64,000 bases of DNA, from NCBI GenBank assembly GCA_018296165.2, contig JACKQL020000021.1, forward strand, positions 859,726 through 923,725. The letters are read 5' to 3'. The notes beneath the pieces are model-generated. The model was not told the DNA's origin. It saw only the letters and a list, made by a program, of their open reading frames with translations, and ran no database searches. This document shows, in pieces, positions 12,397 through 44,977 of the stretch (the first letter of the stretch is position 1; each line of letters begins with the position of its first letter). Source of the stretch: Termitomyces sp. T153 (taxonomy: Eukaryota > Basidiomycota > Agaricomycetes > Agaricales > Lyophyllaceae). A program made the position numbers and the translations under genes.

Positions 12397-12444
12397 GCTT
12401 AATGTTACCTATGGTCTGATTGTTTTGTGTCTCGTGTCTCGTTT

Positions 12445-12523
12445 TCTTATCTCAGTCTCCCAGTCTTATCTCAGTCTCCCGGTCTTATCTCAGTCTCCCG
12501 GTCTTATCTCAGTCTCCCAGTCT
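12445..12523 (+). repeat. About four 19-20 bp tandem repeats in T3 LTR
   Basis: Units of TCTTATCTCAGTCTCCCRG in tandem, downstream of the predicted transcription start; the same block is in the 3' LTR near 17546-17624. T4 LTRs have only a reduced version. Confidence 0.8.
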
Positions 12524-13073
12524 TGTCTCGTCTCCATTTCGTTATTGTTCTCGTTATTGTTTCGTATCTCTATTCGAATCTGCTCTTGTCCCATATCAAC
12601 ACCATCCCATTTCGTCTGACACTGTCTCGGTGACTCCGTCCAATCATTGTGCCCAAGTCTTCATCAACCTTAATGACCTCACGAACTCCGCGATTACGAT
12701 TACGAACCCCGACACTCCTTTACCAGGTCCGAACCTTGCTCTTCGCTCGGTCCCAGACTCCATCGGCTCCAAATGATCTCCCATCAAAACCCGGCTCCGC
12801 TCCCACTGATCACACAGCTGCCTCATCCTTTGCCTCTGCAAATCCCCCGTACGGCCTTCTGCCTGAACCCCTCCAAGACCGTCTCGTTTCCTCACAATCT
12901 GACTTCTCCGGACCTCCCCGGATCTGTCTGGATCACATCCCCCCAACTACCCACACGAGCCACCATGGCCCGGAACGTCTTCGAGTGTTCGGTTACCAGT
13001 GCAAGGGGATCACGCCCGCCTAGTAAGGACTCGCCCAGTGCAGCTGAGCCCCCGAGGTCAGCGGAACCTGACA

Positions 13074-15480
13074 TAATATCAAGACTCTACCTTACCCCGT
13101 CCGTGATGCCCGCACTATCTCCGCACACACGATCAAATAACTCCGATGTCTATGGTCTACCCGTGCCGGGGAACCCTTATGATTCATACGGCCCTGCCCA
13201 ATTTGCCGAGGCACATTGAGTCGCGGATCCGACACCAAACGTCCCCTCCGCTCCGGTTACTTTCATACAACGGCTCCCCCCACGGACACCCTCCCCAACT
13301 CACACCCAACTCCCAACCCCTCGCGCAAACCGTCAAATCATCTTCCACCCCACTCTTACACTCTCCGCTAACTCCGCTCTCTCGCACAAAGTTGGCCCCG
13401 ACATCACCCAAAGAATAACATCCTAAAGCCGGGCGACCATCCGATCAAACGAGTAACAAGGTCTCCGGCACCGCGCCAGCCCTCCAACCAACAATAACGC
13501 CAACCCGCCGCGGAACAGTCACCCACTGCGCGAGGATCGCCAGCTACAAAGAGACCACTGAGAACGCGCTTCCCCGAAGCCCGCCTGTGGATTCACCGGC
13601 CCACCAGCAACCCCGCAGACCGATAAACGCGACTAATCACCAACAACATCACCGAACCCTATTATCGACCCCCTCCAAGGAACTAAACCCTCCGACAACT
13701 AGCCTCGAGACCACCGAAATCAAGCTCGACCCAACAACCCCAACCACAGGACAAGAACCTCAGACCCAGGCTATGCTCCAACCCCATGACCTGCTTCCGG
13801 ACCTTGATCGATTGGCCATCACCTCCGCCCAACAAATGAAGGGGCCCCGACTCCCCCGACCTGACCCCAACAACCCCGGAACAAGACCAAAACATCCCCG
13901 AGCCTCTAGACGTTAATAAGGAGAACCACGGCACCCCGACAAGGGACAACTCCGGACCACGCCGCTATTTCACCACCCTCCCCCACACAATCCGGAGCCC
14001 CCGACAATGAGGACCCTGGACACCAAAACCCCCCGCATGCCACCCCCGAGCTTAAACCCCACCACCAGACTATGCCACCTCCCACGAAGGAATCCCCAGC
14101 ATAGGAGCCACCCCAAACTAACTATAGGAAAAAGGACCCTATACGAAGTAGTTCCCTAAGTACTCTAAATTCGCTGACATGTTCATATAAGGGAGGGAGA
14201 AGCCCCACCATCATCCAGAAAACGATGATGGGCCGTTTAAGCAACCCGACGACCCAACGGGCACGCACTCCGATATCCTCAAAGGACCTCCCCCACCTGG
14301 CTTGACAACCCAAACAACCCCATGCCAGCCTAAAACTGTCCCACCCAGACCCCTCCAAACCCTTCAACACAGCTCTGGACCCTGGCGACACGACTCTAGG
14401 GCCTCCGCTCCAACCACAACATTTGACCAAGAAGACTCACGGCGCCAGCTTGACAATGATGCCCTGGTAGCCCCAACCCCGCGACAGAAATCACCACCCA
14501 CTCCAAAACCCGCCCCTACATCGGAATATGTCCGCCCAAACAGGGACCACATCACCGGAGCCTCCAGAAAAGCGGGCAGTGCCTCTCCCCACTGCCACCC
14601 CCACACTTGCAACAATCTCCAAGCCGCTCCGGAACACGAATGAAGAGTAGCCTCGACCCTGCCGCATCTTCCGGGGAAGCCCCACTCCAGTGCCTCCCCG
14701 CGGCCGACCTCCCCGCCGCCCCAACAACCATGAACAACCAACAAACCCCCACCAAGTGACCCTTGAGTCGACTCCGGAACCACCCACTTCTTCCCGATGA
14801 AGGAACCACCGACCCCCAAACCTCCGAACTTGAGGAAGTATCAGAAATACGTAAGACCCCCTTTGTCCGCCTCGGGCTTACCTTTGGTCAGGAGAGCAAT
14901 ATCACATAAATGATCCGGAACCCCAAATTTCGGCCCCAGACCCGAAGGAACTGGCTGGGGCTGATCACCCCGCATCCTACCCCCTCGGTCATCGACACTC
15001 TGGAGCACACCAAAGCGCCACCCGAAGCATGCCCGCCCACAGACGCAACACTCCGGAACACGACCCCAACCCAGACCAACTATACCGCAAGGACGAACCT
15101 CGCCTCACCAAACCCCACCAATGAAAAAGGCCCCGCCGCCCTCGCCACCAGTGCCGGCATAAGGGCCAGACCATGGGGAGACCCCCATTACCCCCCGCCA
15201 ACCGCACTGCCAAGACAACTAAAGCCCCGAACCCGTTGGGCACCGTAAAAGATTCGAAGGCCCATCCTCCAATACCAACACGGCGCACGTCCCCTACACC
15301 CCCAGTTGGAACTTCCGAGAATCTAACTCAATGACACCGCCTGAAATGCCGGGAACCCCCACTGAAGAACTCCCACCACCCCCGCCGGACCTTGGGAGCC
15401 CTCCTGCGATGCCCCACCCCGTCCCGACAAACCCCGGGACTAGCCAGTGCAGACGGCACTAGTGGGCATAACCCCCGCCT
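13074..15480 (+). pseudogene. T3 relic of gag-pol, non-coding
   Basis: It starts with the PBS (13074-13086) and a gag-like start region. Short blocks then match T8 pol in order: a segment before RT near 14130-14190 (AAGTAGTTCC...AAATTCGCTGAC), an RT segment near 14625-14650, an integrase zinc-finger segment near 14840-14920 and the post-pol segment near 15405-15520. The blocks are separated by deletions and no frame runs through them. T4 (20297-23650) and T9 carry similar relics, so the loss predates the T3 insertion. Confidence 0.75.
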
Positions 15481-15674
15481 CTGGACTCACTAGGGATTCA
15501 ACTCCCTCTCACACCCCTGCGTGTTTCGCTTACTTCGTCCTCATACAAAACTAAAATCTCACTTCACACGCCCAGGGACCAAGAAAGGACATGTTCGTGT
15601 ACAAAAATTATATATACAATAGGCGGGGAAGGCAGCAAGTCCAAGAGCAACAAGAAACGAGACCCACACCCATC

Positions 15675-16805
15675 TCACTCCCTCCCCGGACCCCCCAGCA
15701 ACCCAACCCCCAGGTCGACCTCCATCTGGGCCCGCACCACCGCTAAGATCTCCGCCAACCCCGGCAATGCCTCCCCCGCGTTGGCCGCCACCTCCCACCA
15801 CGATCCCGGGGCCACCGCATTGCGCCGCCGATGCCCCGCCAGCAACCTCTCCAATCGCGCCATCCCCTGCTGCAACTCCGGAGGCTGGACTGCGGACCCC
15901 TGCATCAACCTGTCCTGAATTGATGCGAACGCTGCGGAGGCACCGTCCAAGAGGACCCGATGCTCCCGCACCCAGCCTAAACCCAGAAAATGAACCGTCA
16001 ATAACGAACGGAGGAATGGGAGACAACTCACGAAGGATCCCTGCGCAACCCGAGGCGGCCTCGTTGGCCAACCAATCCTCCCTCCGCCTCGCCACCTCCA
16101 GCTCCGCCCACAACGCATCCCCCTCCGGAACTCGTCCCTGCCCCTCCGCTTCCCCCGCGGGCTGCCCCTCCACCTGCGCCAGACGCTCCCGCAAACCCCA
16201 CACCTCTAGCGCTCGCTCCGTCACCACGCGCACCAAAGTATTCCTCTCCCGCTCCATCACTTCCTTCTCCGTCCGCGCCGCGTCACGATCCTCCCTTGCC
16301 CATCGGAGCTCACCCTCCCGTACTGCCAACGACGTCGTCAAGGCCTCCACCTGCTTGCGAAGGAAGACCTCCGTGATTGAAGGAATCGGCACGGGGGGAC
16401 TCAACAACCGCTCCGAGGGGACGCCCGGGACAGGAGAAAAGAGGGAGGACTCCGGAGGCCCCGCCGACAACTCATGCCCACGCGGCCTCTTGCTGGGTCC
16501 CGCCCCCGAGGGCAGGGAAGCTCGACGCTTCCCCCAAACCATTGCCGAGGACGCCCCCTTCCCCTTTGGCAACGCGGGACGAAACTTGGTCTGTTTCGGA
16601 ACCCCCGGAAAATCCACTACCACTACCACGGACGACTCTAAGGGAGCCCCGTCAATCATCCCGAAAAGAAAGGTCGACAACACTCACGACTCCGGTCCCT
16701 GATGCTACCCCAGCGCCGACGCTTGAACTCCTCACCCCCACTGTTGTACACCACCACCTCGTCCGAATCGGCGGGAGAGACTACTGGAACGCTGGGGGAA
16801 GACAT
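15675..16805 (-). CDS. T3 opposite-strand accessory protein, three exons, 341 aa
   Basis: Minus-strand exons 16805-16688, 16637-16032 and 15976-15675 total 1026 nt, exactly 342 codons with the stop. Introns of 50 nt (GTGAGT...CCTTAG, branch-like TGATTGAC) and 55 nt (GTGAGT...GGTTTAG) are canonical and phase 1. The start MSSPSVPVVSP corresponds to exon 1 of the T8 gene, and intron positions after exon 1 and before the C-terminal domain match it. It has an NLS-like basic stretch (GKRR...SKRPRGHE), a predicted coiled coil (FLRKQVEALTTSL onward, about 80 residues) and a conserved C-terminal region (LLDGASAAFASIQ...WWEV). The six-cysteine cluster of the T8 protein is missing. A TTAAAAG box lies 36-44 bp upstream of the ATG. 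Function unknown; a regulator of the element or of host genes is a guess. Confidence 0.75.
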
Positions 16806-17015
16806 AACGAAATTTGGGAAACCCCGGGGCACGCCCAAAGCTTTTAATTGATTGAGGAGAATCCTGATGAAACAGCGGCCGCGCTTCGACTTCGTCTCCC
16901 ACGCCACTATCATCACTGCGGATTGATCAATATTGCTCGGCTTCGACTCCCACACCCCGCCAATCCCCGCCCTGCCCTCGCGTCTCGAAGGGTCTCGACA
17001 CTGAAAGGGGGGTGA

Positions 17016-18174
17016 TGTCACGACCCATTCCCCGAAACCCCACACATCGTCCATCAACCCCCCGAACCCCCAAAGGGACCCCCAACGCTCCGCCGAACTT
17101 CCGCCCATGCCCCGCGCCTACTTCGGCTAACTCCGACGCCTCCCCGGCTAACTCCGACGGCCCCCTGGCCAACTTCGGTGCCTGCCCCGCAGCCACTGAC
17201 ACTTACCCTGGGCCTCCCGAACCCTGAGAACCACCCCCACTGTTCCCAATCTTCGCCACCCCATCATCAACTGAACACCCTGACCTATTCCGGAGTATCA
17301 CGACAACCTCGGGGCAACCCGCGTTCTCCAATGATCCTGTCAACGTATCAGCGCGGCACAATCCTCGATCACAACCAACACCTGCTCCCTCCGTTGAGCT
17401 CCGCCAAGCCCCACCGCCACAGCCGACGTACGCTGAAGTCCTCCGGTAGTCAGTATATAAGTCATCGAGTAGCTCTTCATACCCTAGTCTTGATATTGCT
17501 TAATGTTACCTATGGTCTGATTGTTTTGTGTCTCGTGTCTCGTTTTCTTATCTCAGTCTCCCAGTCTTATCTCAGTCTCCCGGTCTTATCTCAGTCTCCC
17601 GGTCTTATCTCAGTCTCCCAGTCTTGTCTCGTCTCCATTTCGTTATTGTTCTCGTTATTGTTTCGTATCTCTATTCGAATCTGCTCTTGTCCCATATCAA
17701 CACCATCCCATTTCGTCTGACACTGTCTCGGTGACTCCGTCCAATCATTGTGCCCAAGTCTTCATCAACCTTAATGACCTCACGAACTCCGCGATTACGA
17801 TTACGAACCCCGACACTCCTTTACCAGGTCCGAACCTTGCTCTTCGCTCGGTCCCAGACTCCATCGGCTCCAAATGATCTCCCATCAAAACCCGGCTCCG
17901 CTCCCACTGATCACACAGCTGCCTCATCCTTTGCCTCTGCAAATCCCCCGTACGGCCTTCTGCCTGAACCCCTCCAAGACCGTCTCGTTTCCTCACAATC
18001 TGACTTCTCCGGACCTCCCCGGATCTGTCTGGATCACATCCCCCCAACTACCCACATGAGCCACCATGGCCCGGAACGTCTTCGAGTGTTCGGTTACCAG
18101 TGCAAGGGGATCATGCCCGCCTAGTAAGGACTTGCCCAGTGCAGCTGAGCCCCCGAGGTCAGCAGAACCTGACA
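17016..18174 (+). repeat. T3 3' LTR
   Basis: 1159 bp, preceded by the polypurine tract AAAGGGGGG and TGA, and followed by the CATCC duplication. The TATA box (17454-17460) and self-primer-like site (17486-17497) repeat those of the 5' LTR. Confidence 0.92.
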
Positions 18175-18179
18175 CATCC
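18175..18179. repeat. T3 target-site duplication, right copy (CATCC)
   Basis: Matches 11910-11914; T2 sequence continues after it. Confidence 0.9.
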
Positions 18180-19149
18180 CACCCCTACTCCTCCACCACA
18201 CAGGCTGCACGCCAGCTTAATGATATGGGGCACTTCTCATGCCTGGCACAGCAAGGAATGCAAACAGAGGTGTCCCAACAGGTCCCCTGCATTGGCTTCT
18301 TGAACTCACAATGTTCCCCATAGTGGGTGCAGAGAGCGCACTAAGACATCAAATCAGCTCAGAACCCCACAGACAACACTACAAGCTCACCAGGGCCTCT
18401 GTCTGGCACCATTATAGGGTCAGGGGACCCCACACTCACCCCACCACCTCTGCAAACCTCTCAGGGGTCACATCTGCCTGGGCCACCCGCAATGCCTCCA
18501 GAACAGCCATGACCTGCCCTGGGCTGAAGTTGGACTGTGAGGAATGCCCTGCTGATGCTGAGGCAGGCGGTGCCACACCTCCAGATGACACCCCAGAGGG
18601 GCCAGCCACTGCAGCAGACAACTCTTTTGAACTCGATCAACTATGACAGGACACAGAGGGACAAACCGGCACTCACGACTATAATACATGCATTTGACGC
18701 GACCATAGTGAGGATTGGATTCCCCCAAGGAGGAGGAAGCGGGAGATGCAGATTGCAATGCAGACAGTACTGATGATGTTGGGGAGTAAGCAGAGGATGA
18801 CATTGTGAAGAGTTGGGGAAGCCAGCAAGCCATAAGTACTTGGCTGCAGTGGGAGTCAAGTTCTGTAGGAAGGAATCACTGTACTGGGTGGCGTTCAAAA
18901 TTTTGGAATGATTTGGAGGTAAAGTTGGTGGCTCCCAATGCTCTGCGCTGGCGTATGGGATGCTGAGGAACTGCTTAATAACTTGGGAAGAACCCCCTGG
19001 CAGATGGCGGCTATGCTTCAACTTTGTTTCCCATGCCACCATTGCTTGCTGCGGCCTGATCAATATTGCTTGACTTTGATTCCCATGCCCTGCCAATCCC
19101 TGAACTGCACCCCATGTCTCAAGGGTCTTGCCGCTGAGGAGAGAGTAAT

Positions 19150-23833: not shown

Positions 23834-25407
23834 TCACCCTTCCCCTAGAACCCCTGCCACTCCCACCCCCAAATCAATCTCCATCTGGGCCCACACCACT
23901 GCCAAGACCTCTGCCAACCCTGGCAAGGCCTCCCCTGCATCCGCCACTACTTTCCACCACAACCCCGGGGCCACTGCATTACGCTGCCGATGCCCCGCCA
24001 GCAACCTCCCCACCCTTGCCATCCCCTGCTGCAACTCCGGAGGCTGACCCCCAGACATCTGCGCCAACCCATCTTGGATCAATGCAAACGCTGCGGAGGC
24101 ACCATCCAAGAGAACCTGGTGCTCCCACACCCAGCCTGACCCCAAAAACAACCCATTTTAGTACCAGATGGAGAATTGGGAAAGACACTTATGAAGGATC
24201 CCCGCATGCCCCAAAGCAGCCTCATTGGCCAGCCAATCCTCCCTCCACCTCACTGCCTCCAACTCTGCCCACAGTGAACCACCCTCCAGCACCATTCCCC
24301 GCTCCTCCACCTCCTCCATGGACCGCACCTCCTGCTGCATCAGATGCTCCTGCAAGCCCCGTACCTCTGGCACTCGCTCCATTGCCACTCGCACCAAGGT
24401 GTTCCATGCCCGCTCCAATGCCTCCTTCTCTGCCCATGCTGCATCTCGATCCTCCCTCACCCAGCAAAGCTCCCCCTCCCATGCCATCAACACTGCCATT
24501 AGAACCTAGGAAGACCTCCATGATCAAAGGCGGGGGCTCCAGAGAACTTGATGCCCATCCCAAGGGCATGCCTGGGGTGGGAGAGTAAACGTGAAACCCT
24601 GGAGAACCCACCATCGGCTCGTGCCCCCACGGCCTCTTGCTGGGCCCCGCTCCCAACAGCGGGAAAGCTCTCCGCTTCCCACAGTCTGCCACTGAGGATG
24701 CCCCCTCCCTCCACCCAGTCCACAGAGGCCCCACCTGCCCTGCAGACCACTCCATGCTCCCCTCCCCCAACACCCAGGTCTTCCGCGCCTTGCCCAGCTA
24801 ACTCTGCACCCAGTCCTCATCCCACCCCTGCTCTGCAGCAACGCACACCACTCACCACTCCAATAAGATCAAGCACTTCTTGTGGCTCACATGACACAGA
24901 AGGCAAATGGAAGTGTCATGCTGTGAGCCCATGGAGGGCACATTGAAGATGCAGGCCTTGTCCTGCCATGCACAGAGAACACACTAAGAACAACAGATCA
25001 GCACATGCAACAAAGGAGAACTCAAAGACTCACCAGGGCCTCATTTTGGCACTATTCCAGTGTTGGGGGGCCCCAAGCCTGCACCAACGCCCTTGCAAAC
25101 TCCTCCACCGTCACCTCCGCCTAGGGGTGGGACCCCTTCCGCATCCCCCGCCGTCAATCAGGGCACTGTGGGACGAAATTTGGCCTGCCTAAGACCTCCC
25201 AGAGAACCCACCACCACCACAGACAACTCTGCAAAACTCTGTCAGCCACCCCAAAAAAACAAGTCAATGCTGCTCACGACTCTGGTATATCGCACCAGCT
25301 CAGTGCCAATGCTCAAACTCCTCCCCCTTGCTGTTGTACACGATCACCACGTCCGCATCTGAAATCAACGGGGCGGGGGAAGCGGCTGAGTAACTGGGAG
25401 AGGACAT
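23834..25407 (-). pseudogene. T4 opposite-strand accessory pseudogene
   Basis: Minus-strand exon 1 starts at ATG 25407 (MSSPSYSAASP). The cysteine cluster near 24870-24990 reads CVLCAWQDKAC and then CLLCHVSHKKC, with the family spacing C-x2-C-x6-C-x15-C-x2-C-x6-C; it is followed by the EQGWD segment, the NLS-like and coiled-coil parts, and the C-terminal region ending at the stop at 23834. Donor sites GTGAG(T/C) mark the introns as in T8. Stops (after LLEW and after WVQS, for example) make it a pseudogene. Unlike T3, T4 keeps the cysteine cluster, so T3 lost it secondarily. Confidence 0.7.
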
Positions 25408-29167: not shown

Positions 29168-30683
29168 TGTCTTCTGCAGCACCTTCTTCATTGTCTCCCT
29201 CACCAATCCCACTCCCTTCAGACAACAACTGCATGACTGTGTGGGCCAAGTACAAGCATTGTCAATAGGAGTTTGACCAGCAGCAGGACCATAGAAAGGT
29301 GGATTCAATGCACCGCCATTGTGAGTGTGGTGTTTGTCTTGCTCCAGAGTCACTGATTGAGTTTCAATGAAGTTGTCCTCAGCAGTGGTGGGCTCCTCCT
29401 AGAGTTCCTCTTATATAAGGAGGTCAGGGCCTGCTGGCCATTTAGTTTCTGCTGCCCTGGAGCATTCTACAAGGCCCAGTCTGGGGGCAGGAATTGTTCA
29501 TGTTGTTCTGAAGGTGAAGAGAATTCCATAGGCACAGGTGATGCCAGAGGTATTTGTGGGGGCACTAAGGTGGGCATGGGGTCCTCCAATCCTGGAGTGG
29601 TGCCAGAACAAGGCTCCAGTGAGTCCCTAGCTTGTTATGCAGTGTTTGCTGATTAATCATCCCATTGCACCCTCTCTGCCCAGCATGGGGAGCTGTATGA
29701 GTTTGATGAGCCATCTGCAGGGTCCTGTCATGATACCTCTATTTGCCTCCCATGCCATGCAAGGCACAAAAAATGTTTGGTTTTACTGGAGTGGCATGCT
29801 ACCTATATTGCTGCAGAGCAGGAGTGAAAGGAGAGCTGAGTGAGGGGGCAGTTGGGTGAGAGTTGGAAGGCCAGAGTGTCAGGCCAGGGCTCAGGTTTGA
29901 AGGGTGAGTAGAATGTGGGGCAGCTGGCAGGGAAGGTGGGGCCTCTGTGGAATGGGTGGAGGGAGGAGGCTCCAATGTCACATGACAAGGGGAAGCAGAG
30001 GGCCTCCCTGCTGCCAGAGGCAGGGCCTAGCAAGTGGTTGCATGGCCAGGAATTGATGGTGGGCCCCCCTGGGCTTCACATGTACTCTCTCAGCTCAAGC
30101 GCACTGCTGAGATGTCTGTCAAGTTCCCCTGAGCCCACACCCTCAATCACTGAGACATTCCTTTGTTGTCAGGTGGAGGGACTGTCAAGGATGCTGACAG
30201 CATGAGAGGGGGAGCTCCAGAGGGTAGAGGAGGACCAAGACACAGTGTGGAAGGAGAGAGACATGCTGCAGTGGGATTATGACATGGCAGTGCAGATGGC
30301 CATAGCAAAGGCATTGGAGGTGCAGGGTCTACAGGAGTGCCTGATGCAGTTGGAGGCACAATCCATAGAGGAGGCAGAGGAATGGCAGACTTTGGAGGAG
30401 GGGAGCTTATTTTGGGCAGAGGCAGAGGCTGCAAGGTAACAGGAAGAGTGGTTGGTGAACAAGGCTGCCTCAGGGCATGCAGGCATGTTATGTGAGTGTT
30501 TAACCCTTTGTCCTTGACTTCTTCTGACATAGTCTTGGTAGGCTGGATCCAGAAACACCAGGTCCTCCTGAATGGGGCTTCAGCAGCATTTGCTTCAATT
30601 CAGGATGGGATAGCACAGATGCCTGAGGATCACCCTCCAGAGTTGGGGCAGGGGGTGTTGTGGCTGGTTCACCTGGCTGCATG
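29168..30683 (+). pseudogene. T6 accessory pseudogene (plus strand)
   Basis: It starts at ATG 29168 (MSSAAPSSLSPSP), matching exon 1 of the T8 gene. A GTGAGT donor near 29320 and a second near 29618 (after EWCQNKAP) match introns 1 and 2. The cysteine cluster near 29660-29770 is damaged (two cysteines replaced by Ser and Tyr) but the 15-residue loop and CLPCHARHKKC are kept. The NLS-like, coiled-coil and C-terminal regions (VLLNGASAAFASIQDG near 30565) follow until the break at 30683. Several stops make it non-functional. Confidence 0.7.
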
Positions 30684-33600: not shown

Positions 33601-34050
33601 CTACTATGACCATTGCCAGACACCAGCCCCAGTTTACAAGCCAGGGGACTGTGTGTATTTAGATAGCTCAGATATTAAGACAATGAGGCTGTCTCAAAAA
33701 CTATCACATTGTCATCTTGGCCCCTTCATGGTCAAGAAGAAGGTGGGGCCTTTAGCATACTGACTTAAGCTCCCAGCAGGCCTATACCAATTGCACCCAG
33801 TCTTCAATGTTGTCAAACTTTTCCCAGCACCAGAAGATCCAATCTCTGGCCACTGCCCTAAGGCACCCCCACCACCAGTCCTTGTCTAGCAGAATATTCC
33901 AAGGGAAGCTGCAGTTCAAGGTGAAGTGGAAGGGATATGGCATTGAGGACATCTCTTAGGAACCACAGGCTAATGTGCATGCACCTGCCCTGGTCTAAGA
34001 CTTCTACCACAGACATCCCAATGCCTCAAGAGCCATCCAAGGCATCTACC
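30684..34050 (+). pseudogene. T7 pol pseudogene (RT, RNase H, integrase, chromodomain)
   Basis: Order: post-protease linker (IDW...EVKM near 30700), RT from about 31230 ([26 protein letters not shown]), with the catalytic YLDD now stop-LDN near 31687; RNase H (VDSSDFAMGAVLS near 32130); integrase with an HHCC-type finger near 32810-32945 and an acidic core including YHPQSDGQMEHVNQELEQY near 33280; and a chromodomain relic (VKWKGYGIED near 33920). Many TAG and TGA codons replace Arg, Gln or Trp codons, as expected from C-to-T or G-to-A change. The last codons of pol lie beyond T8 at 44894-44950. Confidence 0.85.
34046..34050. repeat. T8 target-site duplication, left copy (CTACC)
   Basis: CTACC before the T8 5' LTR equals 44894-44898 after the 3' LTR. 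It interrupts a Gly-Ile-Tyr codon run of T7 pol. Confidence 0.93.
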
Positions 34051-35050
34051 TGTCACGACCCGCTCCCTAGCTCCCTAGACACTGCTCCCAACCCCTCCCG
34101 ATTTCCCGCCTAACTCCCCGGGACCCCGCCCACACTTTCGACGCCCACACTGGACAACTCCGACACTTCTCCGGCAAACCCTGACGGCAACTCCCTCTCC
34201 GTAGCCATCAACACCCCCTTGAAACCTTCCCCCACCATTCCTGGCCACATCATACGTCCCCGACCCCCTACCCTAGTTTACCCGACCCGTCCTGGAGTGT
34301 CACGATGTCCCCGGAGCGGCCGCGCCCCCAACTGATCCCATCAGAATACAGCCGCGGCCCGACCTCGGATTGTACCCGACACCCGTCGACTCAGCACAGC
34401 TCCGTCGACCCCCGCCATCATATCCACCGCCCTCAGAGGCACCCAGTAGTCAGTATATAAGTCATAGAATAACTCCTCGAACTTTAGTCTTGATATTACA
34501 TTTTACCGGTTTCCTATGTTTCGTCTCTCGTCTCGTCTCTATTTCTGTTTCTAGGTTTCAAATCTATCTTTTCTCAGTCTTGTCTCGTCTCCGTCTCGTC
34601 TCGACTGTACATATTTCCTTTGTTCCTCTGAAGTTCCCTTGCTCCCTACGTCAGTACAAACTCTGCACATGCGCCACGACCTGAACATTCTTAACGACAA
34701 CTCCGGACCTCGCTACCCGCTCGGCCCCGGAACCCACCAAGCCCCGGTAATCCCCTGTCCAACTCCGACCCCGCCCCCCATCAACCGAGAAGCCTCCGCC
34801 TACCCCGCAATCTACTTGTGCACCCACTAACTAGCCCTGACACCCGCCCTGGGTCGACGATCAGTACCTCCAGTCTTAGACCCCTCCGAATCACTCAGGA
34901 CTTACTTGGGCCGCTCTCCCTAGGGGCCCCTCGCAAGCTTTCCCCACCTCCGCTCCAACTCCGGATGCCTGGTTATAAGCGCAGGACATCGCGTCCGCCT
35001 AGTAAGGACTCGCCAGTGTACTGAGCCCCCGTTGTCAGCGGAACCTGACA
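34051..35050 (+). repeat. T8 5' LTR
   Basis: 1000 bp, TGTCACGACCC...GCGGAACCTGACA, matching 43894-44893 with about three differences. Confidence 0.95.
34454..34498 (+). promoter_or_regulatory. T8 TATA box and self-primer-like site
   Basis: TATATAA at 34454-34460. AGTCTTGATATTA at 34486-34498 starts 32 nt after the TATA start, where transcription should begin, and is the perfect 13-nt reverse complement of the PBS at 35051-35063. The 3' LTR repeats this at 44297-44303 and 44329-44341. Confidence 0.75.
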
Positions 35051-35063
35051 TAATATCAAGACT
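35051..35063 (+). other. T8 primer-binding site
   Basis: TAATATCAAGACT begins at the base after the LTR. Adjacent placement is normal for a PBS; complementarity to the element's own predicted mRNA 5' end suggests self-priming rather than a tRNA primer. Confidence 0.7.
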
Positions 35064-35082
35064 CCCCCTTACCCCGTTCTCG

Positions 35083-37518
35083 ATGTCTGCATTTAACCCC
35101 GCGTACAACCCAGTCGGTTACCCAACCAACGCCTATGGCTGGCCCATACTGGAAAATTCCTACGCCCCATTCTACCCGGGTCCCTTTGCGGACCAATACG
35201 TGCCCCGTCACTGGACCCCTGACCCCAACCAGGTGTTCTACGCCCCCTCCATCAGCCGGGGAATACCCCCGGGCTGGCGCCGCCCTCCCGCATTCCACGC
35301 CAATGGCAACAACCCCCGTATCAACCCCGGAGGATACTCCGCAGCACCCCCCAACCCCGCCTACCTTCCCCCCGCCCATTACTATGTGTACCCAATCCCC
35401 GCTGCAGCCCCAGTCCCTCCGGAAGCCACGGATAACTATTCCCCACCCCGCCCACCATTCGCCGTTCAAACCCCTCCTTCTCCTAGGCAGCAAAGGATCG
35501 AAGCCTACGCCCAGCAACGCAACGAAGTCCTCTGCTTCCTCCGCCTGTCCCCTGCGGAATTCGCAAGGCGTACCCGCACCCTCCTTACCAACCTAGGCTA
35601 CCCCGACGCCTCCGCAACCCCAGAGGTCTGGGCGGATCGACGCCTCGACTTCCACAAACGCTACCTACAAGGGAACCTCCCGGAGAATACGCAAGGCACC
35701 CTGGGCCTCGATGACAACTTACGGAACGAGCTCTGTGCCTTGGTCAAAGAAATCCACACTAGCCTGAACCCCCGCCCCTTCGAAGATCCCCTGGATCCCG
35801 CCCGCTCCTTCCACGTGCAACGCAAGGAACCCGTTGGGACACGAAACGAAGCCCCATCTTCCGTTCCCCGCCAGCAGGAAGAACTCAATGCGGCCTCCAG
35901 CATCTTGAGGAATCTCAACCCCGCGGGGGGGTTGTTTGACCAACCCGCCGCCCACACCCTGGCCCTCTCTGCCCGGCCCCGGGCCAGCTCGGTGCCCAGC
36001 GCCTTCCGAACCTGGGACCAACCCGCCGTCCCCGAAATCCGCTCCCAACGACCGCCCCTACGCATCGACGACAACAACCGGACCCTCTCCTATATTGACG
36101 AGCCGGGCAACCCCGCCGACGAACACCCCCCGCGCAACGGGCCCCAACGAGACCGACCCCCCCACTTCGACCTCCACGCCCCTCGTAGCAATGCCCCTCC
36201 GCCCCGTCCCAATGCCCCAGTTCCCCCGCAACAGCCCCTGGGCCCCGGGGCGCCCCGACCTCCTCTTTCCGTCAACCCCTCTCGTCCCCCACCCGCTCCG
36301 ATGCCTAACCCCCCCAATGATGTCAACTATTTCGGACCCCCGAATCCCGGAGGACCCCCTCCCCCTCGATGGGCCCCAGGACCCGCCCCGGGTAGTGTAG
36401 GTCAAAACCCCGGTGGGGGACCACCCAATGGCGGACCCCCGGGAGGATGGGGCCCGGTGATGGACAGCTTTCCCCCCCAGCGCGGAAACGGAAATAACTA
36501 CTACTACTACTACTACTACAACGCCGGACCCCCACCTTGAACTCAAAATTCGCAGGACGATACCCGCGACGCACTGGCCTGGGAAGGAAAGCTCAACATC
36601 CAGAAGCCCGAACCCTTCACCGGCCGCGACCCCCGGAAGTGGCGAATCTTCCTGACCCAGTGTTTAACTATGTTTCAAGCTAAGCCCATCACTTTTCAGC
36701 TTGAGAGCTCACGAGTAGCCTTCGCCGCATCATACTTACAGGGCATCGCCTTCGACCACTACACCGCGCTACTCCGGTTCGACCCAAACAATCCCGTACT
36801 CTCCCATTGGCTCGCTTTCACTCAAGAGTTCTTGAGTAAGTTTGGCGTCTTTGACACCATAGCAGAGGCGGAGGAAAATCTCTTCAACCTCCGAATGCAC
36901 GACAACGAACGCTTCACGACCTTCATTGTACGATTCAAACAAGAGGCCTACGAGACCGGCTGGAATTACAACGCCCTCCGGTTCGCCCTCCGTCATGCCC
37001 TGCCCCAACGGATCAAGGACGTCCTTCGCCTCGCGCCCAAACAAACCACCTACGACGGGTACAAGGCACTCGTTACCCAGGTTGACCAACGTTATTGGGA
37101 AGATCGCAGCGAAAACATGGCGCCCCAGACCTCGTGGAATACCTCCAGTAACACCAACTGGCAGGCCGGAGCAACCAATGGCATCCGATCCTCCATCCCC
37201 ACTAACCCTGCTAACCCCGCACCCCGCTTCCCCCCAGGCCGAGGAGTCCCCAACACTAACCGGCCCCCGGGGCAGCGACCACCTGCCCAGCTCAACGCCG
37301 CCGACCTCCACGACACCCCAGTACCCCTGGATACCAACCCTGATGATTGCGACGACATCCTGGACCCCGCCGACGATCAGGAGGCCCTATGCGCAAACAG
37401 GATCCAGGACAGTCAGTGGATCAACGTGCCGGAAGAAACGCAGGAGAAACGATGGAAGGAGGGCGCGTGCATCCTATGTGGTGAGCAGGGACATTTTATT
37501 CGCAGTTGCCCTAAATAA
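35083..37518 (+). CDS. T8 Gag, interrupted by one TGA
   Basis: The ATG at 35083 (MSAFNPAYNP) is the first after the PBS. The first ~480 residues are Pro/Asn/Tyr-rich, ending in a run of seven tyrosines near 36498-36520. In-frame TGA at 36538-36540 is followed by the capsid-like part (FLTQCLTMFQAKPITFQLES) and a zinc knuckle CILCGEQGHFIRSC near 37470-37511. T2 has a Gln codon where T8 has TGA, so the stop is a recent change or is read through. The frame then meets TAA at 37516-37518, created by a 4-bp TAAA duplication absent from T2. Without it gag would run to about 37600 and overlap pol in the -1 frame, as in T2. Gag forms the particle and binds RNA. Confidence 0.82.
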
Positions 37519-40500
37519 ACGACAGGTGATGGGACGCGCCGTGTGGACAATCGACGGAGAAGACTGCAACTACCAGTTCATGGAAAACAAGTTGGCAGTT
37601 TAGGTCTGGAAGATGCACTAGACCGCGGACCACATCCCGACGTCTTCTCCACCCCAGCCACACTCCTCCGCGCAATGATGCTTGCCCTGGACAACCCCCC
37701 AGCACACCTCCCCTCTCAATCCTCCACAAACCTCCTCCTCCGCACCACTCTTCCCTTCACCGACAAACCCGTCCCCACACTAGTCGACAGCGGCGCCACC
37801 GATAACTTTATTGATGAATCCCTGGCAGCGCTCGCCCCACAACCCCTCCACCATCTTCCCGCCCCGATCCCCCTCAAACTCTTTGACGGAGACTCTACCC
37901 CAGCGGGAGACATCACTCATTGCCTAGAAACGACCCTGACCTTTGCCAACGGACAACAGCAAGAACTCCGACTACTCGTCACAAAATTACACCCCTCTGC
38001 CCCCGTCGTCTTAGGGTTCTCATGGCTCCGCTCCACCAATCCCCGCGTCAATTGGCCCAGTCTCACCCTACGCCTCGACTGGGACAACCCCACCAACTCC
38101 GGACTGGTACCCTTCCATGTCTCACCCCCCTCCGAGAGCTCCGAGACCATGATCAACCCACCCCGGACCCCGCCGCAACTTCGCTCTAGGTCTGCGCGAT
38201 CGTTTGTCATCTATGTCTGACTTGGCGGCTTGCTCAAGGTACTTCCCACCCTCATAGACAGCGGCGCCTCCAGTGTCTTCATCAGCAACCAACTTGACCT
38301 CCGACGCAATGACCTCGACAAACCCCTCGAGCTCCAACTCTTTGATGGGAGCCCCGCCACGACAAGAATCACGCAGTACCACGACAACATCCTCACCCTC
38401 GATAACGACCTGCAGTTCCAGGCCCGACTCCTTGTTACCCAACTACCCCCGTCGACCCTGATCGTGCTCGGACTCCTGTGGCTGCAAGACGTCAACCCCG
38501 ACATCAACTGGAAGAACCTTACCATGCAATTCCCCGGCCCCGAAGCGAGCTTAGCAGCCGCCATCCACCTCTGCTTCCAGCCTATCCCAGACCCCGACGC
38601 CACCCCGGATCCAACTGCTACACCTACGGGACCCAGCCCTGTCGACTCCGGAAACCTCGACATTAAAATCATCGGTGCCATCCCCTTTGCGTGCCTCCTA
38701 CGAGAAGGCACCCCCGCCTTCCAGTTGCAAGTCACTCCGGCCCTACTGGAGGAATACCTCCGTGCAGGGACTACCACGCCAGAAAAGAAGACAGAGGAAC
38801 AGATCCTATCCAAAGTAGTTCCCCCGGAGTATCATAAGTTCGCTGACGTGTTCTCCGAAGGAAGTGCCAAGGAACTCCCTCCGCACCGCTCCTACGACCA
38901 CCAGATCGACCTCGAAGAAGGCACCTCACCCCCGTTTGGCAAGATCTACAACATGTCCAAAATCAAGCTCCGGGCCCTGAAGGAATACCTCGACGACATG
39001 CTCGGCAAAGGTTTCATACGTCCCTCGATCTCCGCGGCTGGTGCTCCGGTTTTGTTTGCCAAGAAAAAAGACGGATCCCTCCGACTCTGTGTGGATTATC
39101 AGGGACTCAACAAAGTCACCAAGAAGAACTGGTACCCCCTCCCCTTAATCGGAGACCTTGTTGATCGCCTTCACAGCGCCAAGATTTATACGAAAATTGA
39201 CCTTCGTTCCGGCTACAACAACGTCCGGATCGCCCCGGGGCATGAGTGGAAGACCACCTTTCGCACCCGCTACGGCCTCTTTGAGTATCTCGTAATGCCC
39301 TTCAGAATGACTAACTCCCCCACCACCTTCCAGTACTTCATGAACGACATCTTTCACGACATGAACGACGTCTTTGTCATCGTATATTTGGACGATATCC
39401 TGATCTACTCGAATTCGCCGGCGGAGCATTTGGAGCACGTCCGCCATGTCTTGGAACGACTCCGAGAGTATCACCTTCATGCTAAACCCGAAAAGTGCTC
39501 ATTCCACACAGCGGAAGTCGAATATCTCGGGGTCATCGTCACCCCCAACAGTGTGCGCATGGACCCCGCCAAGGTTGACGCAATACTCAACTGGCCCTCC
39601 CCGCGGAACGTCAAGGATGTACAGTCATTCTTGGGGTTTGCTAACTTCTATCGCCGCTTCATCGACAACTACTCCGGAATCACCAAACCCCTCAACCGGC
39701 TCACAAGGAAGGACACCCCTTGGGATTGGGACAGCAAGTGCCAGGGCGTATTCCTCCTCCTGAAGAAGGCTTTCACCTCCGCTCCGGTCCTCCGCCATTT
39801 TGACCCCTCCCTACTGATCGTGCTCGAATGTGACACCTCCGACTACGCTATCGCCAGGATACTCTCCCAGTCGAACTTGGAGGGCAAGGATCTCCACCCC
39901 GTCGCCTTCTACACCCGATCAATGATCCCAGCGGAACTCAACTACGACATTTACGACAAGGAACTCCTCACGATCGTCAAAGCCTTTTGTCAGTGGCGGG
40001 CCTACCTTGAAGGGTCCCCGCACCGCATCCAAGTCTACTCCAATCACAACAACCTGCAATACTTCACGACCACGAAACAGCTCAGCCGCCGCCAGGCTCA
40101 ATGGTCCAAAACCCTTTCGGAGTACGATTTTACCATTCACTACCGCCCCGGGCGACTCGGCGCAAAGCCCGACGCCCTCACTCGGAGACCCGACGTGTAT
40201 CCAAAGAAATCGTTTGAAACCGAACGAAATGCATTCAACCATTGAGTGGTAATCCCACCCGAACATCTACATGCCGTGCTGATTTTAAACGAAGAAGGAA
40301 TCCTCCAGCAAATCAGGAATTCACCCCCGGACCCCTTCTTCAACCAGCACGACCCCCGCAACAACCCCGACGAGTCAAGCGTAGACAACCCCTTTTCGCT
40401 ATCCCCGGACCACCGCCTGCTGCTCTGAAGTGGACGAATCTACGCCCCGGACCACAAGTCCATTTGCCTCGACATACTCCGGCAGCACCACGATCACAAA

Positions 40501-41673
40501 CTCCAGGGGCACCCGGGAATTCGTAAGACCCTTCAACTCATCTCCCGGACTTATTTTTGGCCAGGAATGAAGAAGGACGTCACGCAATACGTGAGGGCCT
40601 GCGAACCCTGCCTACGGGCCAAAGTCCCCCGCCATCGCCCCCACGGATTACTGAAACCCCTCCCTGTCGGTCGCCGCCCCTGGTCTTCAATATCGATGGA
40701 TCATATCGTCAAACTCCCCGACTCCGAAGGTTTTGACGCAATTCTCGTCGTCATCTGCCGCCTTACCAAGCAAGCCCTCTTTATTCCCTGCCACACCACT
40801 AACACCGCCCCGGATTTTGCCAAACTATTTCTAGAACACATATTCTCCAAACACGGACTTCCCGACGACATCGTCTCCGACCGTGGACCCCTATTTGTAT
40901 CTCATTTCTGGCAATCGCTGTGCAAGGCACTTGAGATCAAAACCAGCCTCTCTACCGCCTACCACCCAGAAACCGACGGGCAAACCGAGCACGTAAACCA
41001 GACGTTAGAACAGTATCTTCGCCTCTACGTTAACTATTTACAGAACGACTGGCGTGCGGAGCTCCCCCTCGCCGAATTCACCTACAACAACACGCCTCAC
41101 TCCGCCACCGGAGTTTCCCCCTTTTACGCCAACAAGGGCTACAATCCCCGACTCACGCTGTCCCTCAAGGACATCCCCTCCCACGTGGCCCATGAAGTCG
41201 CCGAGGACCTCCGATCCCTCCACCAATTCCTCCGGGACGAGATCGACACCACCAACCAAGCCTACTCCAAGCATGCCAACGCCCATCGCCAGCCGACCCC
41301 TGACTGGCCCCCCGGCACCTTAGTCTGGCTCGACCGACAAAATCTTAAGACCCGGAGGCCTTCTATCAAACTCGACCACAAATGCCTCGGCCCATTCAAG
41401 ATCCTCCGGAAGGTCTCCACCCACGCTTACAAGCTCGACCTGCCTCCGGGTCTGAAGGGCCTCCACCCTGTGTTTCACGTTCGACTCCTTGAAAGGCACG
41501 CTCCAGACCCCTTCCCCGGCCAACACCCCAGCAGACCGCCCCCCGTCGAAGTTGAGGACGAATATCACTACGAGGTCAACGAGATCCTTGACTCCCAGGT
41601 AGTTCGCGGCCGACTCCAGTACTTGGTCCGCTGGAAGGGCTACGGACCTGAGGACGATACATGGGAACCCTGA
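37519..41673 (+). CDS. T8 Pol: two retropepsin-like domains, RT, RNase H, integrase, chromodomain
   Basis: One reading frame, broken only by TGA at 38218, 40243 and 40426 and ending at TGA 41671-41673. First protease-like domain: [10 protein letters not shown], Asp codon at 37786. Second: [10 protein letters not shown], Asp codon at 38257; both continue into a similar LVT-[KQ]-L-x5-VLG-[FL]-x-WL core. RT has VDYQGLNKV and YLDD at 39385-39396, but the usual MPFG motif reads MPFR. RNase [15 protein letters not shown] near 39830. Integrase: HHCC finger near 40490-40610, acidic core ([27 protein letters not shown]) and a GPF motif. The chromodomain ([19 protein letters not shown] near 41617-41671) is cut before its C-terminal helix by the final TGA. 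It copies and integrates the element; the chromodomain class targets chromatin. Confidence 0.88.
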
Positions 41674-41984: not shown

Positions 41985-43680
41985 TCACTCTCCCTCCTCC
42001 TCCGACCCCAACCCCGCTACCCTTCCCACCATGAACACCTCCAACTGTGCCACTACCGCCGCCAGAACCTCGGGTTGCCCGGGGAGCGGTTCCCCCATGT
42101 CCGTCACTATCTCCCACCACGCCCTGGGGTCTGCCGTCGCCCTCCGCTGATGCCCTGCCAACAGGCGCCCCATCTGCGTAACCCCTTGACCCAACTCCGG
42201 CGGGAGGTCCCCGGGCATCCTCGCCAACCCATCATGGATGGACCCCAGCGCTGCCGACGCTCTGTCAAGAAGGATGCGATGCTCCCGGGCCCAGTCTGTG
42301 GAACCCGAATCAGCGCTTAGGAGAAGAAAGCGGGAAGACCACTCACGAAGCACTCCTCGCCGGCCCGAGGCCACCTTGTTAGCGAGCCACTCCTCCTGCC
42401 GCCGCGCCCTCTCCGCCGCCGCCCGGACTTCCCCAGCGCTGGAACCCTGCTGAGTCTCCCGCACCCCTGAGCCTCCTGCCTGCTGTGTCGCCACCTCCGC
42501 TGCCTCCACCCGCGCCTGCAAATGCACCGTCCGCACCTCCAACTCCTGCAGACGAGATAATCGCTCCGCGGCAGTCCTGACGGCGACGTCCTTGTCTTTC
42601 CGTGCCAGGTCCCGTTCCCTCCAAACCCCGTCCAACTCCCGTCGAGCCCCGTCCCTCTCCTCCCATACCCCCTGAATCTCCTCCTCGCATATGACCAACA
42701 ACCGTTCCAAGCCCTCTACCCGACGCCGCAGATAGGCCTCCACAACCGACCATGACCTGTCCGCGGACTGCTCAACGGGGGCTCCGGACGTAGGGGAATA
42801 CACCGCGGAACCAGGGGGGCCCTCCATCACCTGCTCGCCCCGTGCCCGCTTACTGGGACCCGCCTCGGGTGAAGGGGACGCCCTCCGTTTCCCTTTCTCC
42901 TGCCTGGAAGGGGCCTCCTCCTTCTGTCCACCCCGCGGAGGGCCCACCTTCATGACAGGCGCGCCAACCTGTTCCCCTTCCCCAGCCCTGGAGCCCCTCC
43001 CCAACACCCTGCCCTTCTGCCCTTCCTCCAGCTGTGCTGCGACCCAACCTTGATCCCACCCTTGCTCCGCCACGACGCAAACGGCCCGCCAACTCAGGGT
43101 GACGGAGCACTTCTCGTGCCGCGAACGGCACGGAAGGCACACCGACGTGTCCCGCCGTACCCCCGGTGCCGGTTCCTCAAACTCACACTGCTCCCCTCGT
43201 CGGGTACAAGACGCACACTGCAGGGGCATGTTAGTCCGGGAGACATGAAGCTAAGTGGCCACTCACCGGAGCCGCCGCCTGACACCACTCAAGGGTGGGG
43301 GGACCCCTCGCCTGACCCACCGCCTCGGCAAACTGCTCCGGCATCACCTCCGCCTGGACCACCCTCGAACCCTCTGGGACAAGCCGGACCACCCCCAGGC
43401 GAATGCCAGACTTGGAACGCGTAGAAGTGACCACGCCCGCCGGGGGCTGCGTCGCATCCGCACCAGACGGTGGCCCTGAGGGACCAGCCACAGCCGCGGA
43501 CAACTCTGCGAAGGGACAATCAGTGTCCTGGGGTACATGGAACGGGCGGCACTCACGACTACGGTACATCGCCTCGACCCGACGGCGATCTTGGTGACCC
43601 TCCAAATCTTCGGAGGACAACGGCTGGGAAGGCGGGGATGGTGACCTAGATGCTGTGGGAGAATAAGCTGAAGAAGACAT
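41985..43680 (-). CDS. T8 opposite-strand gene: Zn2Cys6-like, coiled-coil protein, four exons, 514 aa
   Basis: Minus-strand exons 43680-43557, 43505-43267, 43217-42347 and 42295-41985 sum to 1545 nt, exactly 515 codons with the stop. Introns of 51, 49 and 51 nt all read GTGAGT...(C)AG with CTGAT- or CTAAC-like branch sites. Residues 122-158 hold C-x2-C-x6-C-x15-C-x2-C-x6-C (CASCTRRGEQC...CLPCRSRHEKC), the layout of a fungal Zn(II)2Cys6 DNA-binding cluster but with a longer central loop than the usual 5-12. It is followed by SW...EQGWDQGW, a basic NLS-like stretch near 229-247, a charged coiled coil near 279-367 and a conserved C-terminal region after intron 3. The gene sits between pol and the 3' LTR, does not oppose pol domains, and recurs in T2-T6. 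A role as a regulator is inferred from the domain layout only. Confidence 0.8.
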
Positions 43681-43715
43681 TGCAACAAGCTGGCGGACTC
43701 CTGGGTGTGTCCACC

Positions 43716-43726
43716 CCTTTTAATAA
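43716..43726 (-). promoter_or_regulatory. TATA-like box of the T8 opposite-strand gene
   Basis: Minus strand TTATTAAAAGG, 36-46 bp upstream of the ATG at 43680. T3 (16841-16849) and T4 (about 25445-25454) have AATTAAAAG-type boxes at almost the same distance, although surrounding sequence differs. Confidence 0.45.
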
Positions 43727-43879
43727 GTTAAGAAGGGGCCCCTGACGAATGGCGGCCGCACCTCGACTTCCTTCCCCACACCGCCGCCGCTTGCTGTGGT
43801 TTGATCAATATTGATCAACTTTGATTCCCACGCCCTACCGGTCCCCGACTCGCTCCCCGCGTCTCGAGGGTCTTGATGC

Positions 43880-43893
43880 TGAAGAGGGGGTGA
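43880..43893 (+). other. T8 polypurine tract
   Basis: TGAAGAGGGGGTGA directly before the 3' LTR; the plus-strand DNA primer is expected to come from such a tract. Confidence 0.75.
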
Positions 43894-44893
43894 TGTCACG
43901 ACCCGCTCCCTAGCTCCCTAGACACTGCTCCCAACCCCTCCCAATTTCCCGCCTAACTCCCCGGGACCCCGCCCACACTTTCGACGCCCACACTGGACAA
44001 CTCCGACACTTCTCCGGCAAACCCTGACGGCAACTCCCTCTCCGTAGCCATCAACACCCCCTTGAAACCTTCCCCCACCATTCCTGGCCACATCATACGT
44101 CCCCGACCCCCTACCCTAGTTTACCCGACCCGTCCTGGAGTGTCACGATGTCCTCGGAGCGGCCGCGCCCCCAACTGATCCCATCAGAATACAGCCGCGG
44201 CCCGACCTCGGATTGTACCCGACACCCGTCGACTCAGCACAGCTCCGTCGACCCCCGCCATCATATCCACCGCCCTCAGAGGCACCCAGTAGTCAGTATA
44301 TAAGTCATAGAATAACTCCTCGAACTTTAGTCTTGATATTACATTTTACCGGTTTCCTATGTTTCGTCTCTCGTCTCGTCTCTATTTCTGTTTCTAGGTT
44401 TCAAATCTATCTTTTCTCAGTCTTGTCTCGTCTCCGTCTCGTCTCGACTGTACATATTTCCTTTGTTCCTCTGAAGTTCCCTTGCTCCCTACGTCAGTAC
44501 AAACTCTGCACATGCGCCACGACCTGAACATTCTTAACGACAACTCCGGACCTCGCTACCCGCTCGGCCCCGGAACCCACCAAGCCCCGGTAATCCCCTG
44601 TCCAACTCCGACCCCGCCCCCCATCAACCGAGAAGCCTCCGCCTACCCCGCAATCTACTTGTGCACCCACTAACTAGCCCTGACACCCGCCCTGGGTCGA
44701 CGATCAGTACCTCCAGTCTTAGACCCCTCCGAATCACTCAGGACTTACTTGGGCCGCTCTCCCTAGGGGCCCCTCGCAAGCTTTCCCCACCTCCGCTCCA
44801 ACTCCGGATGCCTGGTTATAAGCGCAGGACATCGCGTCCGCCTAGTAAGGACTCGCCAGTGTACTGAGCCCCCGTCGTCAGCGGAACCTGACA
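43894..44893 (+). repeat. T8 3' LTR
   Basis: 1000 bp copy of 34051-35050, followed by CTACC at 44894-44898. Confidence 0.95.
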
Positions 44894-44977
44894 CTACCCC
44901 CTTTCTGCAGTGGACCAGGCAATTCATAACTTCTTCTACCCAGTGTGTTAAGATGCCACATGCTAGAGGGGGGGTGA
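44894..44977 (+). pseudogene. T7 pol end after the T8 insertion, with polypurine tract
   Basis: It starts with the right CTACC duplication, continues T7 pol in frame (LSAVDQAIHNFFYPVC) to TAA near 44948-44950, then TGCTAGAGGGGGGGTGA before the LTR. Confidence 0.75.

What the first reader, a model, noticed from the sequence alone, without database searches (positions are those of the whole stretch)
41985..43680. Intron-bearing gene on the opposite strand of a Ty3/Gypsy retrotransposon
T8 carries, between pol and its 3' LTR, a four-exon minus-strand gene. Three introns of 51, 49 and 51 nt have GTGAGT donors and plausible branch sites, and the exons sum to exactly 515 codons. Introns antisense to the genomic RNA are not removed during retrotransposition, so they can persist through replication cycles; their retention fits a gene expressed from its own promoter. 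The same gene, with matching intron sites, is in T2, T3, T4 and T6. I know of no described element with this gene, but I could not search.
Basis: partly seen in the sequence, partly recalled or inferred. Interest (0 to 1): 0.9.

Follow-up and report, generated by a model that had tools for sequence, protein, structure and literature searches.

The report
Selected antisense gene inside fungal retrotransposon
A jumping element in a fungal genome, probably that of a termite-farmed Termitomyces mushroom, carries on its opposite strand an extra gene with three predicted introns that selection has preserved across its copies, and that likely makes a nuclear protein helping the element to spread.

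Summary
Minus-strand gene 43680-41985 has four exons, predicted introns of 51, 49 and 51 nt, and 514 codons plus stop. It lies between integrase/chromodomain and 3' LTR of a Ty3/Gypsy element (34051-44893; LTRs 99.7% identical; 5-bp target duplication). The genome holds at least 101 matches; 80 of 111 integrase hits have the gene just 3' on the opposite strand. Of 41 best-scoring copies 28 are intact, none has cleanly lost an intron, and introns vary more than third codon positions. CpG-corrected dN/dS is 0.42 on internal branches (integrase 0.32; LTR false frames not different from 1) and 0.87 on terminal ones: selected in the replicating lineage, decaying after insertion. The upstream 213 bp is shared between element families, suggesting a promoter. 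A family without detected pol (T3, 11915-18174) keeps a 341-aa relative with introns at two homologous sites, its internal branches also constrained. Homologues were found only in Termitomyces. Antisense accessory genes are known in plant elements and Botrytis Boty (brtn): a new variant of a known kind. Transcription, splicing and function are untested; a nuclear element-specific regulator is my inference.

The parts
34046..34050 (.). 5-bp target site duplication CTACC, left
34051..35050 (+). 5' LTR of T8 (TGTCACG...CCTGACA)
35032..37518 (+). gag-like ORFs (35032-36540, 36670-37518, the latter ending in a CCHC knuckle CILCGEQGHFIRSC, seen by eye); interrupted by stops in this copy
37543..41673 (+). 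pol: protease-like ORF 37543-38220 (DSGA motif by eye), RT/RNase H (38230-40245), integrase plus chromodomain (40567-41673); interrupted in this copy
43557..43680 (-). exon 1 of the antisense gene (ATG at 43680)
43506..43556 (-). intron 1 (predicted), 51 nt, GTGAGT...CAG, CTGAT branch-like site
43267..43505 (-). exon 2
43218..43266 (-). intron 2 (predicted), 49 nt, frame-breaking if kept, GTGAGT...CAG
42347..43217 (-). exon 3: Cys region, basic NLS-like stretch, coiled coil
43107..43217 (-). Cys motif CX2CX6C-X15-CX2CX6C (residues 122-158), within the most constrained block
42296..42346 (-). intron 3 (predicted), 51 nt, GTGAGT...CAG, CTGAT branch-like site
41985..42295 (-). exon 4: C-terminal helical region, stop at 41985-41987
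43681..43893 (-). candidate antisense promoter: palindrome TTGATCAATATTGATCAA and TATA-like ATTAAAAG; aligned with T3, T2 and T4, seen by eye in T6
43881..43893 (+). purine-rich tract GAAGAGGGGGTGA before the 3' LTR (candidate polypurine tract)
   Evidence: sequence
43894..44893 (+). 3' LTR of T8
44894..44898 (.). target site duplication CTACC, right
11915..18174 (+). T3: LTR element without detected pol (LTRs 11915-13073 and 17016-18174, 99.57% identical; CATCC on both sides)
15675..16805 (-). T3's antisense gene, 341 aa, predicted introns 16687-16638 (50 nt) and 16031-15977 (55 nt)
11322..11946 (-). T2's antisense gene, 3' part (broken)
18176..18803 (-). T2's antisense gene, 5' part (exons 1, 2 and start of 3), cut off by T3
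23840..25120 (-). decayed relative in T4
29370..30681 (+). decayed relative in T6

Best explanation
This is an accessory gene carried by a Ty3/Gypsy retrotransposon family on the strand opposite to gag-pol, kept by purifying selection in the replicating lineage, and its protein likely acts in the nucleus as a regulator of its own element family. Shown here: position, orientation, exon structure as read from sequence, copy number, selection, and conservation of the upstream region. Inferred steps: (1) an antisense promoter in the 213 bp between ATG and 3' LTR would start the mRNA at the TATA-like box; (2) the host spliceosome would remove three introns, which the genomic RNA cannot lose because they are antisense in it, so each new copy keeps them; (3) the protein (Cys region likely binding zinc, NLS-like KRRAS...KRARG, predicted coiled coil) would enter the nucleus; (4) it would bind its own LTR or the palindrome beside it and favour expression against host silencing. 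The T3 family, in which no pol was found, would need its own diverged version because recognition is family-specific or acts close to its source.
For: Gene in at least 101 places; order integrase, antisense gene, 3' LTR in 20 of 20 fetched 9-10-kb copies; 80 of 111 integrase hits have the gene 3', opposite strand, commonest gap 317 bp (38 of 80). 28 of 41 copies intact; donors GT 36, 41 and 38 of 41, acceptors AG 40, 41 and 41 of 41. Diversity in 41 copies: codon positions 0.035, 0.040, 0.076; introns 0.096-0.124. CpG-corrected dN/dS, 39 copies: internal 0.42 (96 N, 120 S, p=2.4e-10), terminal 0.875 (p=0.096); controls in 21 copies: integrase 0.32 and 0.67, LTR false frames 0.78-1.37, none significant. 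Residues 91-185 with the Cys motif: internal 0.14 (6 N, 24 S). Upstream region shared by families, core motifs in 38 and 39 of 41 copies. T3 family: internal 0.29 over 17 copies, against 0.80 (p=0.26) for the sense ORF opposite it; 0.39 (p=0.0025) over the 9 with T3 internal DNA matched. J132 protein P0001, a public model of the same length, 91% identical over 100%.
Against: No transcript or protein evidence. No Pfam family over its cut-off (Zn_clus E 0.01-0.03, below cut-off), no PDB relative, structure model poor (mean pLDDT 49), so nuclear and DNA-binding roles rest on motifs. The T3 version lacks the Cys region, so DNA binding by that region cannot be the shared function. The branch-like site of intron 2 is missing in 27 of 41 copies (CCAAC in the commonest form); donors of introns 1 and 3 are changed to AT in 5 and 3 of 41. 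31 of 111 integrase hits have no detected gene neighbour (both lists are capped). Terminal branches are not distinguishable from neutral. A purely trans-acting activator would not by itself be maintained copy by copy. The 41 copies are the best-scoring of 101, so intactness is biased upwards.
Confidence: 0.55

Rival explanations
1. The protein restrains its own element (copy-number control, as an antagonist of particles or of transcription), so that selection keeps it through host survival.
For: Antisense regulators of retroviruses exist (antisense retroviral genes named in PMC11963269, discussion; HBZ as a repressor is recalled). Same selection data.
Against: Element-level selection favours copies that lose a brake, yet the gene is kept in a family with at least 101 matches and in the T3 family. 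This is an argument, not a test.
Confidence: 0.15
2. The protein serves in the particle or pre-integration complex (RNA or cDNA binding, nuclear entry, packaging), which could give preference for the carrying copy.
For: Basic and Cys-rich regions, predicted coiled coil; constraint in the T3 family is easiest with cis preference; a link between antisense ORFs and nuclear entry is discussed for plants (PMC7264820, section 7).
Against: A separate antisense promoter and an NLS-like stretch fit a nuclear regulator as well; nothing here shows RNA binding.
Confidence: 0.2
3. The antisense transcript, not the protein, matters: it forms duplex RNA with genomic RNA and controls silencing.
For: Antisense transcripts of retrotransposons can feed small RNAs (review PMC7264820, section 8).
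Against: Codon-level constraint, with introns varying more than exons, needs a protein.
Confidence: 0.07
4. A host gene captured by or nested in the element that merely hitch-hikes.
For: Spliceosomal introns are typical of host genes.
Against: Constraint shows between element copies; the gene and its upstream region are shared by diverged families; the 120 listed protein matches are Termitomyces hypothetical proteins, none named as a host gene.
Confidence: 0.05

Closest known systems
Plant Retand/Grande/RIRE2-type antisense ORFs between pol and 3' LTR (aORF-3R), e.g. TRP28 and gene23
   Same: Ty3/Gypsy elements (Retand, Grande); extra gene between pol and 3' LTR, antisense, conserved between copies; own promoter and nuclear product reported for Grande gene23 (review PMC7264820); Retand has non-autonomous members too (PMC11963269).
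   Different: Plants; Retand is not a chromovirus lineage (abstract, PMC11963269); no Transposase_28 match here; the word intron was not found in PMC11963269 or PMC7264820, while here there are three predicted introns, two of them at sites shared by two families.
Botrytis Boty-like element with antisense gene brtn (Zhao et al. 2011; not read, seen as a citation and in passages of PMC8365987 and PMC4227169)
   Same: Fungal LTR element whose gag-pol has RT, integrase and chromodomain (PMC4227169 passage), with an additional antisense gene.
   Different: Ascomycete host; no brtn sequence was held, so homology and introns were not tested.
Zn2Cys6 binuclear cluster regulators (PF00172)
   Same: Two CX2CX6C units, the second (CLPCRSRHEKC) resembling the basic half of Zn_clus.
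   Different: Below the Pfam cut-off; 15-residue spacer; basic half second, not first (usual order recalled).
HTLV-1 HBZ (recalled)
   Same: Spliced antisense gene at the 3' end of a retroelement, nuclear regulator.
   Different: Starts in the 3' LTR and is a bZIP protein (recalled); no sequence relation tested.
Large non-autonomous LTR elements (LARD-type; name recalled)
   Same: T3 has LTRs, target duplication and terminal signals like T8's but no detected pol.
   Different: T3 keeps one gene, antisense, whose internal branches look constrained.

Membership tests
Ty3/Gypsy chromodomain element (T8) | RT, RNase H, integrase, chromodomain in this order between LTRs | tested here: met
   RVT_1 3e-37, RT_RNaseH 8e-29, rve 1.6e-9, Chromo 1.7e-11; LTRs and TSD
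Antisense accessory ORF between pol and 3' LTR (aORF-3R class) | antisense, between pol and 3' LTR, conserved in many copies | tested here: met
   20 of 20 copies, 80 of 111 integrase hits
Antisense accessory ORF between pol and 3' LTR (aORF-3R class) | transcribed from its own promoter (shown for some members) | tested here: inconclusive
   conserved upstream region and TATA-like box; no RNA data
Retand TRP28 proteins | Transposase_28 domain | tested here: not met
   21 proteins of A2 scanned against Pfam at E 0.1: only Zn_clus, Cep57_CLD_2 and Rod_CreS, one member each
Boty brtn | sequence homology to brtn | not testable with these tools
   sequence not held; no Botrytis protein among the 120 listed of 125 matches
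Zn2Cys6 regulator (PF00172) | match over Pfam's gathering score | tested here: not met
   16.3 bits against 21; 1 of 21 members at E 0.028
Non-autonomous LTR element (T3) | LTRs and TSD but no pol | tested here: met
   window copy: no RT or integrase by tblastn with T8's, no long gag or pol ORF seen. Family: 0 of 110 T3-type genes have one of the 150 best RVT_1 hits upstream, against 80 of 101 T8-type; that capped list favours T8-like RT, so for other copies this is support, not proof

The most novel reading that the evidence does not exclude
An LTR retrotransposon family without pol whose only protein gene is an intron-bearing antisense gene kept by selection: the element borrows its whole replication machinery in trans but must bring its own antisense protein, meaning that protein is a family-specific or cis-acting licence for retrotransposition.
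Probability: 0.3. Interest if true: 0.8.

Novelty: new variant of a known kind. Interest (0 to 1): 0.62.

Why it matters
Antisense genes of LTR elements are described, in the papers seen here, mainly from plants, and their function is open. Here one has predicted introns, so antisense splicing could be read directly from RNA-seq; selection is measurable from dozens of copies in one genome; and a relative family that keeps the gene without detected pol could separate what an element must supply itself from what it can borrow. Introns antisense to the genomic RNA are a natural version of the antisense-intron markers used to score retrotransposition (recalled).

Tried and rejected
Introns 1 and 3 as in-frame coding inserts: rejected, because they vary more than third codon positions and their homologues in T3 are 50 and 55 nt. 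A sense ORF opposite the T3 gene (15623-16702) as the selected frame: stops do not separate the two (each without a stop in 11 of 18 copies, sense ORF counted over 15675-16702 only), but dN/dS does: internal branches 0.80 (p=0.26) for the sense ORF, 0.29 for the antisense gene (17 copies). Plain pN/pS without CpG correction was 0.44 pooled over 28 intact copies; corrected values are the ones used. For T3, 7 copies matched to T3 internal DNA or the window give 28 N and 26 S among shared variants, a weaker signal than the 17; 9 copies give 0.39 on internal branches, 0.84 over all branches (p=0.17). Homologues outside Termitomyces: three searches found none; the first two scored only about 8000 candidates each and all three lean on shared words, so absence is not shown. 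PDB profile search: nothing. Structure prediction too poor for a fold search, so none was run. Paper searches for a described equivalent turned up the plant and Boty cases and no Termitomyces one; the library lacks most subscription journals.

Full report
What is there. The minus-strand gene at 43680-41985 has four exons that join to 515 codons including the stop, with predicted introns of 51, 49 and 51 nt, all GTGAGT...CAG. On the plus strand are RT, RNase H, integrase and chromodomain of a Ty3/Gypsy element. Its LTRs (34051-35050, 43894-44893) are 99.7% identical and flanked by CTACC. Gag and pol of this copy are interrupted, while other copies have integrase and RT hits in an open frame of 1394 codons.

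Host. The genome (72.4 Mb, 307 contigs, unnamed) is probably a Termitomyces: the 120 listed of 125 protein matches are all Termitomyces (J132, T112, Mn162, T159_Od127), and so are those listed (120 of 125; 6 of 6). J132 is in Lyophyllaceae, Agaricales. The J132 protein P0001 has 514 residues like the spliced product and is 91% identical; another model, P0025, has extra residues where intron 1 would be, as if it was left in.

Part of the element. The genome holds at least 101 matches and at least 111 integrase matches, both capped lists; 80 of 111 integrase hits have the gene just 3' on the opposite strand, commonest gap 317 bp. This is a lower bound: the gene in L015 is unpaired but has integrase beside it. 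In 20 of 20 fetched 9-10-kb copies the order is integrase, antisense gene, 3' LTR.

Introns. In 41 copies (T8 and ranks 2-41 of 101 by score, so the better ones) 28 are intact; donors are GT in 36, 41 and 38, acceptors AG in 40, 41 and 41. Lengths are constant except one deletion across intron 1 and one 1-nt insertion; no clean loss. Intron interiors vary more (0.096-0.124) than third codon positions (0.076), first (0.035) and second (0.040). Branch-like YTRAY sites at the T8 positions stand in 40, 14 and 41 of 41 copies; intron 2's is CCAAC in the commonest form, a point against efficient splicing there. In T8 introns 1 and 3 are open and in frame; in the T3 family the homologous introns are 50 and 55 nt, so there they must be removed to keep the frame.

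Selection. With a CpG-aware spectrum from introns and upstream DNA, 39 copies (a frameshifted and a deleted one dropped) give dN/dS 0.42 on internal and 0.875 (p=0.096) on terminal branches. Controls in 21 copies: integrase 0.32 and 0.67; the LTR in three false frames 0.78 to 1.37, none significant. By region, internal branches: residues 1-90 0.41, 91-185 0.14, 186-272 0.41, 273-375 0.44, 376-514 0.59. CpG transitions are the commonest noncoding changes (62 and 61 in the two classes), which fits methylation-driven decay after insertion (inference).

Second family. T3 (11915-18174; LTRs 99.57%; CATCC on both sides) has no RT or integrase match to T8's and no long gag or pol ORF that I could see, but an intact 341-aa relative with two introns; the Cys region is absent. 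It shares LTR ends, the sequence after the 5' LTR and the purine tract with T8. T3-type genes number at least 110; 0 of 110 have one of the 150 best RVT_1 hits upstream, against 80 of 101 T8-type genes, though that capped list favours T8-like RT. Of 40 scored full-length hits to T3's internal DNA, 32 lie beside such a gene. Every seventh of the 110 hits (16) was fetched; a truncated copy in L011 was aligned but dropped from the test. With T3, 17 copies give internal dN/dS 0.29; the sense ORF opposite gives 0.80. Only 9 of the 17 are matched to T3 internal DNA (6, 2 by a 561-bp piece, and T3 itself): they give 0.39, p=0.0025, on 7 internal branches, suggestive rather than firm.

Upstream region. 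The 213 bp before the ATG are alike in T8, T3, T2 and T4 (aligned) and in T6 by eye, with AATATTGATCA (within a perfect 18-bp palindrome in T8) and a TATA-like ATTAAA or ATTAAG stretch; in T8 copies the core is kept in 38 and the TATA-like box in 39 of 41. I take it as the antisense promoter and a possible binding site; untested.

Protein. Low-complexity start, conserved block, CX2CX6C-X15-CX2CX6C, NLS-like basic stretch, long predicted coiled coil (helix 273-367; block pLDDT 73-92 over 281-360), helical end; mean pLDDT 49. No Pfam family over cut-off, no PDB relative.

Mechanism. A spliced antisense mRNA from its own promoter would make a protein that I infer to be nuclear, a family-specific regulator helping its element against silencing. 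Shown: gene, place, copies, selection. Inferred: promoter, splicing, localisation, binding, effect. Rivals: particle or pre-integration factor; brake; antisense RNA; hitch-hiking host gene.

Known kinds. Plant elements (Grande, RIRE2, Retand, PvRetro13) carry antisense ORFs between pol and 3' LTR (PMC7264820: passages and sections 7 and 8; PMC11963269: outline with abstract, passages, discussion). The fungal Boty element has antisense brtn (cited in PMC7264820, PMC8365987 and PMC4227169, passages read; the paper itself not read). In PMC3248453 (fungal LTR survey) a term search found no 'antisense' and no 'intron' in the main text; passages of PMC5408684 and PMC12477816 gave no LTR equivalent (the latter has an opposite-strand gene in a Sola1 DNA transposon). 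So the kind is known; an intron-bearing, basidiomycete, Cys-motif version shared with a family lacking detected pol was not found described in the searches listed under Tried and rejected.

Noticed in passing
11322-11946 and 18176-18803 around 11915-18174: T3 is inserted into T2's antisense gene: the two halves of that gene lie on both sides of T3 and its CATCC duplication.
   Followed up: partly
18975-20223 and 25449-26698: The LTR of T4 and the stretch before it are matched at 94% by 18975-20223, as if T2 and T4 share one LTR by recombination.
   Followed up: no
30998-33965: A plus-strand RT and integrase of a diverged Ty3/Gypsy element (about 41% identical to T8 pol) lies directly after T6's gene.
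   Followed up: no
54839-55358, 62031-62312 and ORF 60720-61418: 59-bp tandem arrays, duplicated blocks at 52.7-57.4 kb and a Pif1 2B-domain ORF, perhaps a Helitron-like element.
   Followed up: partly
L014, L018, L023: These contigs begin at or just inside the end of this family's LTR, so the assembly breaks in such elements and copy numbers are lower bounds.
   Followed up: no
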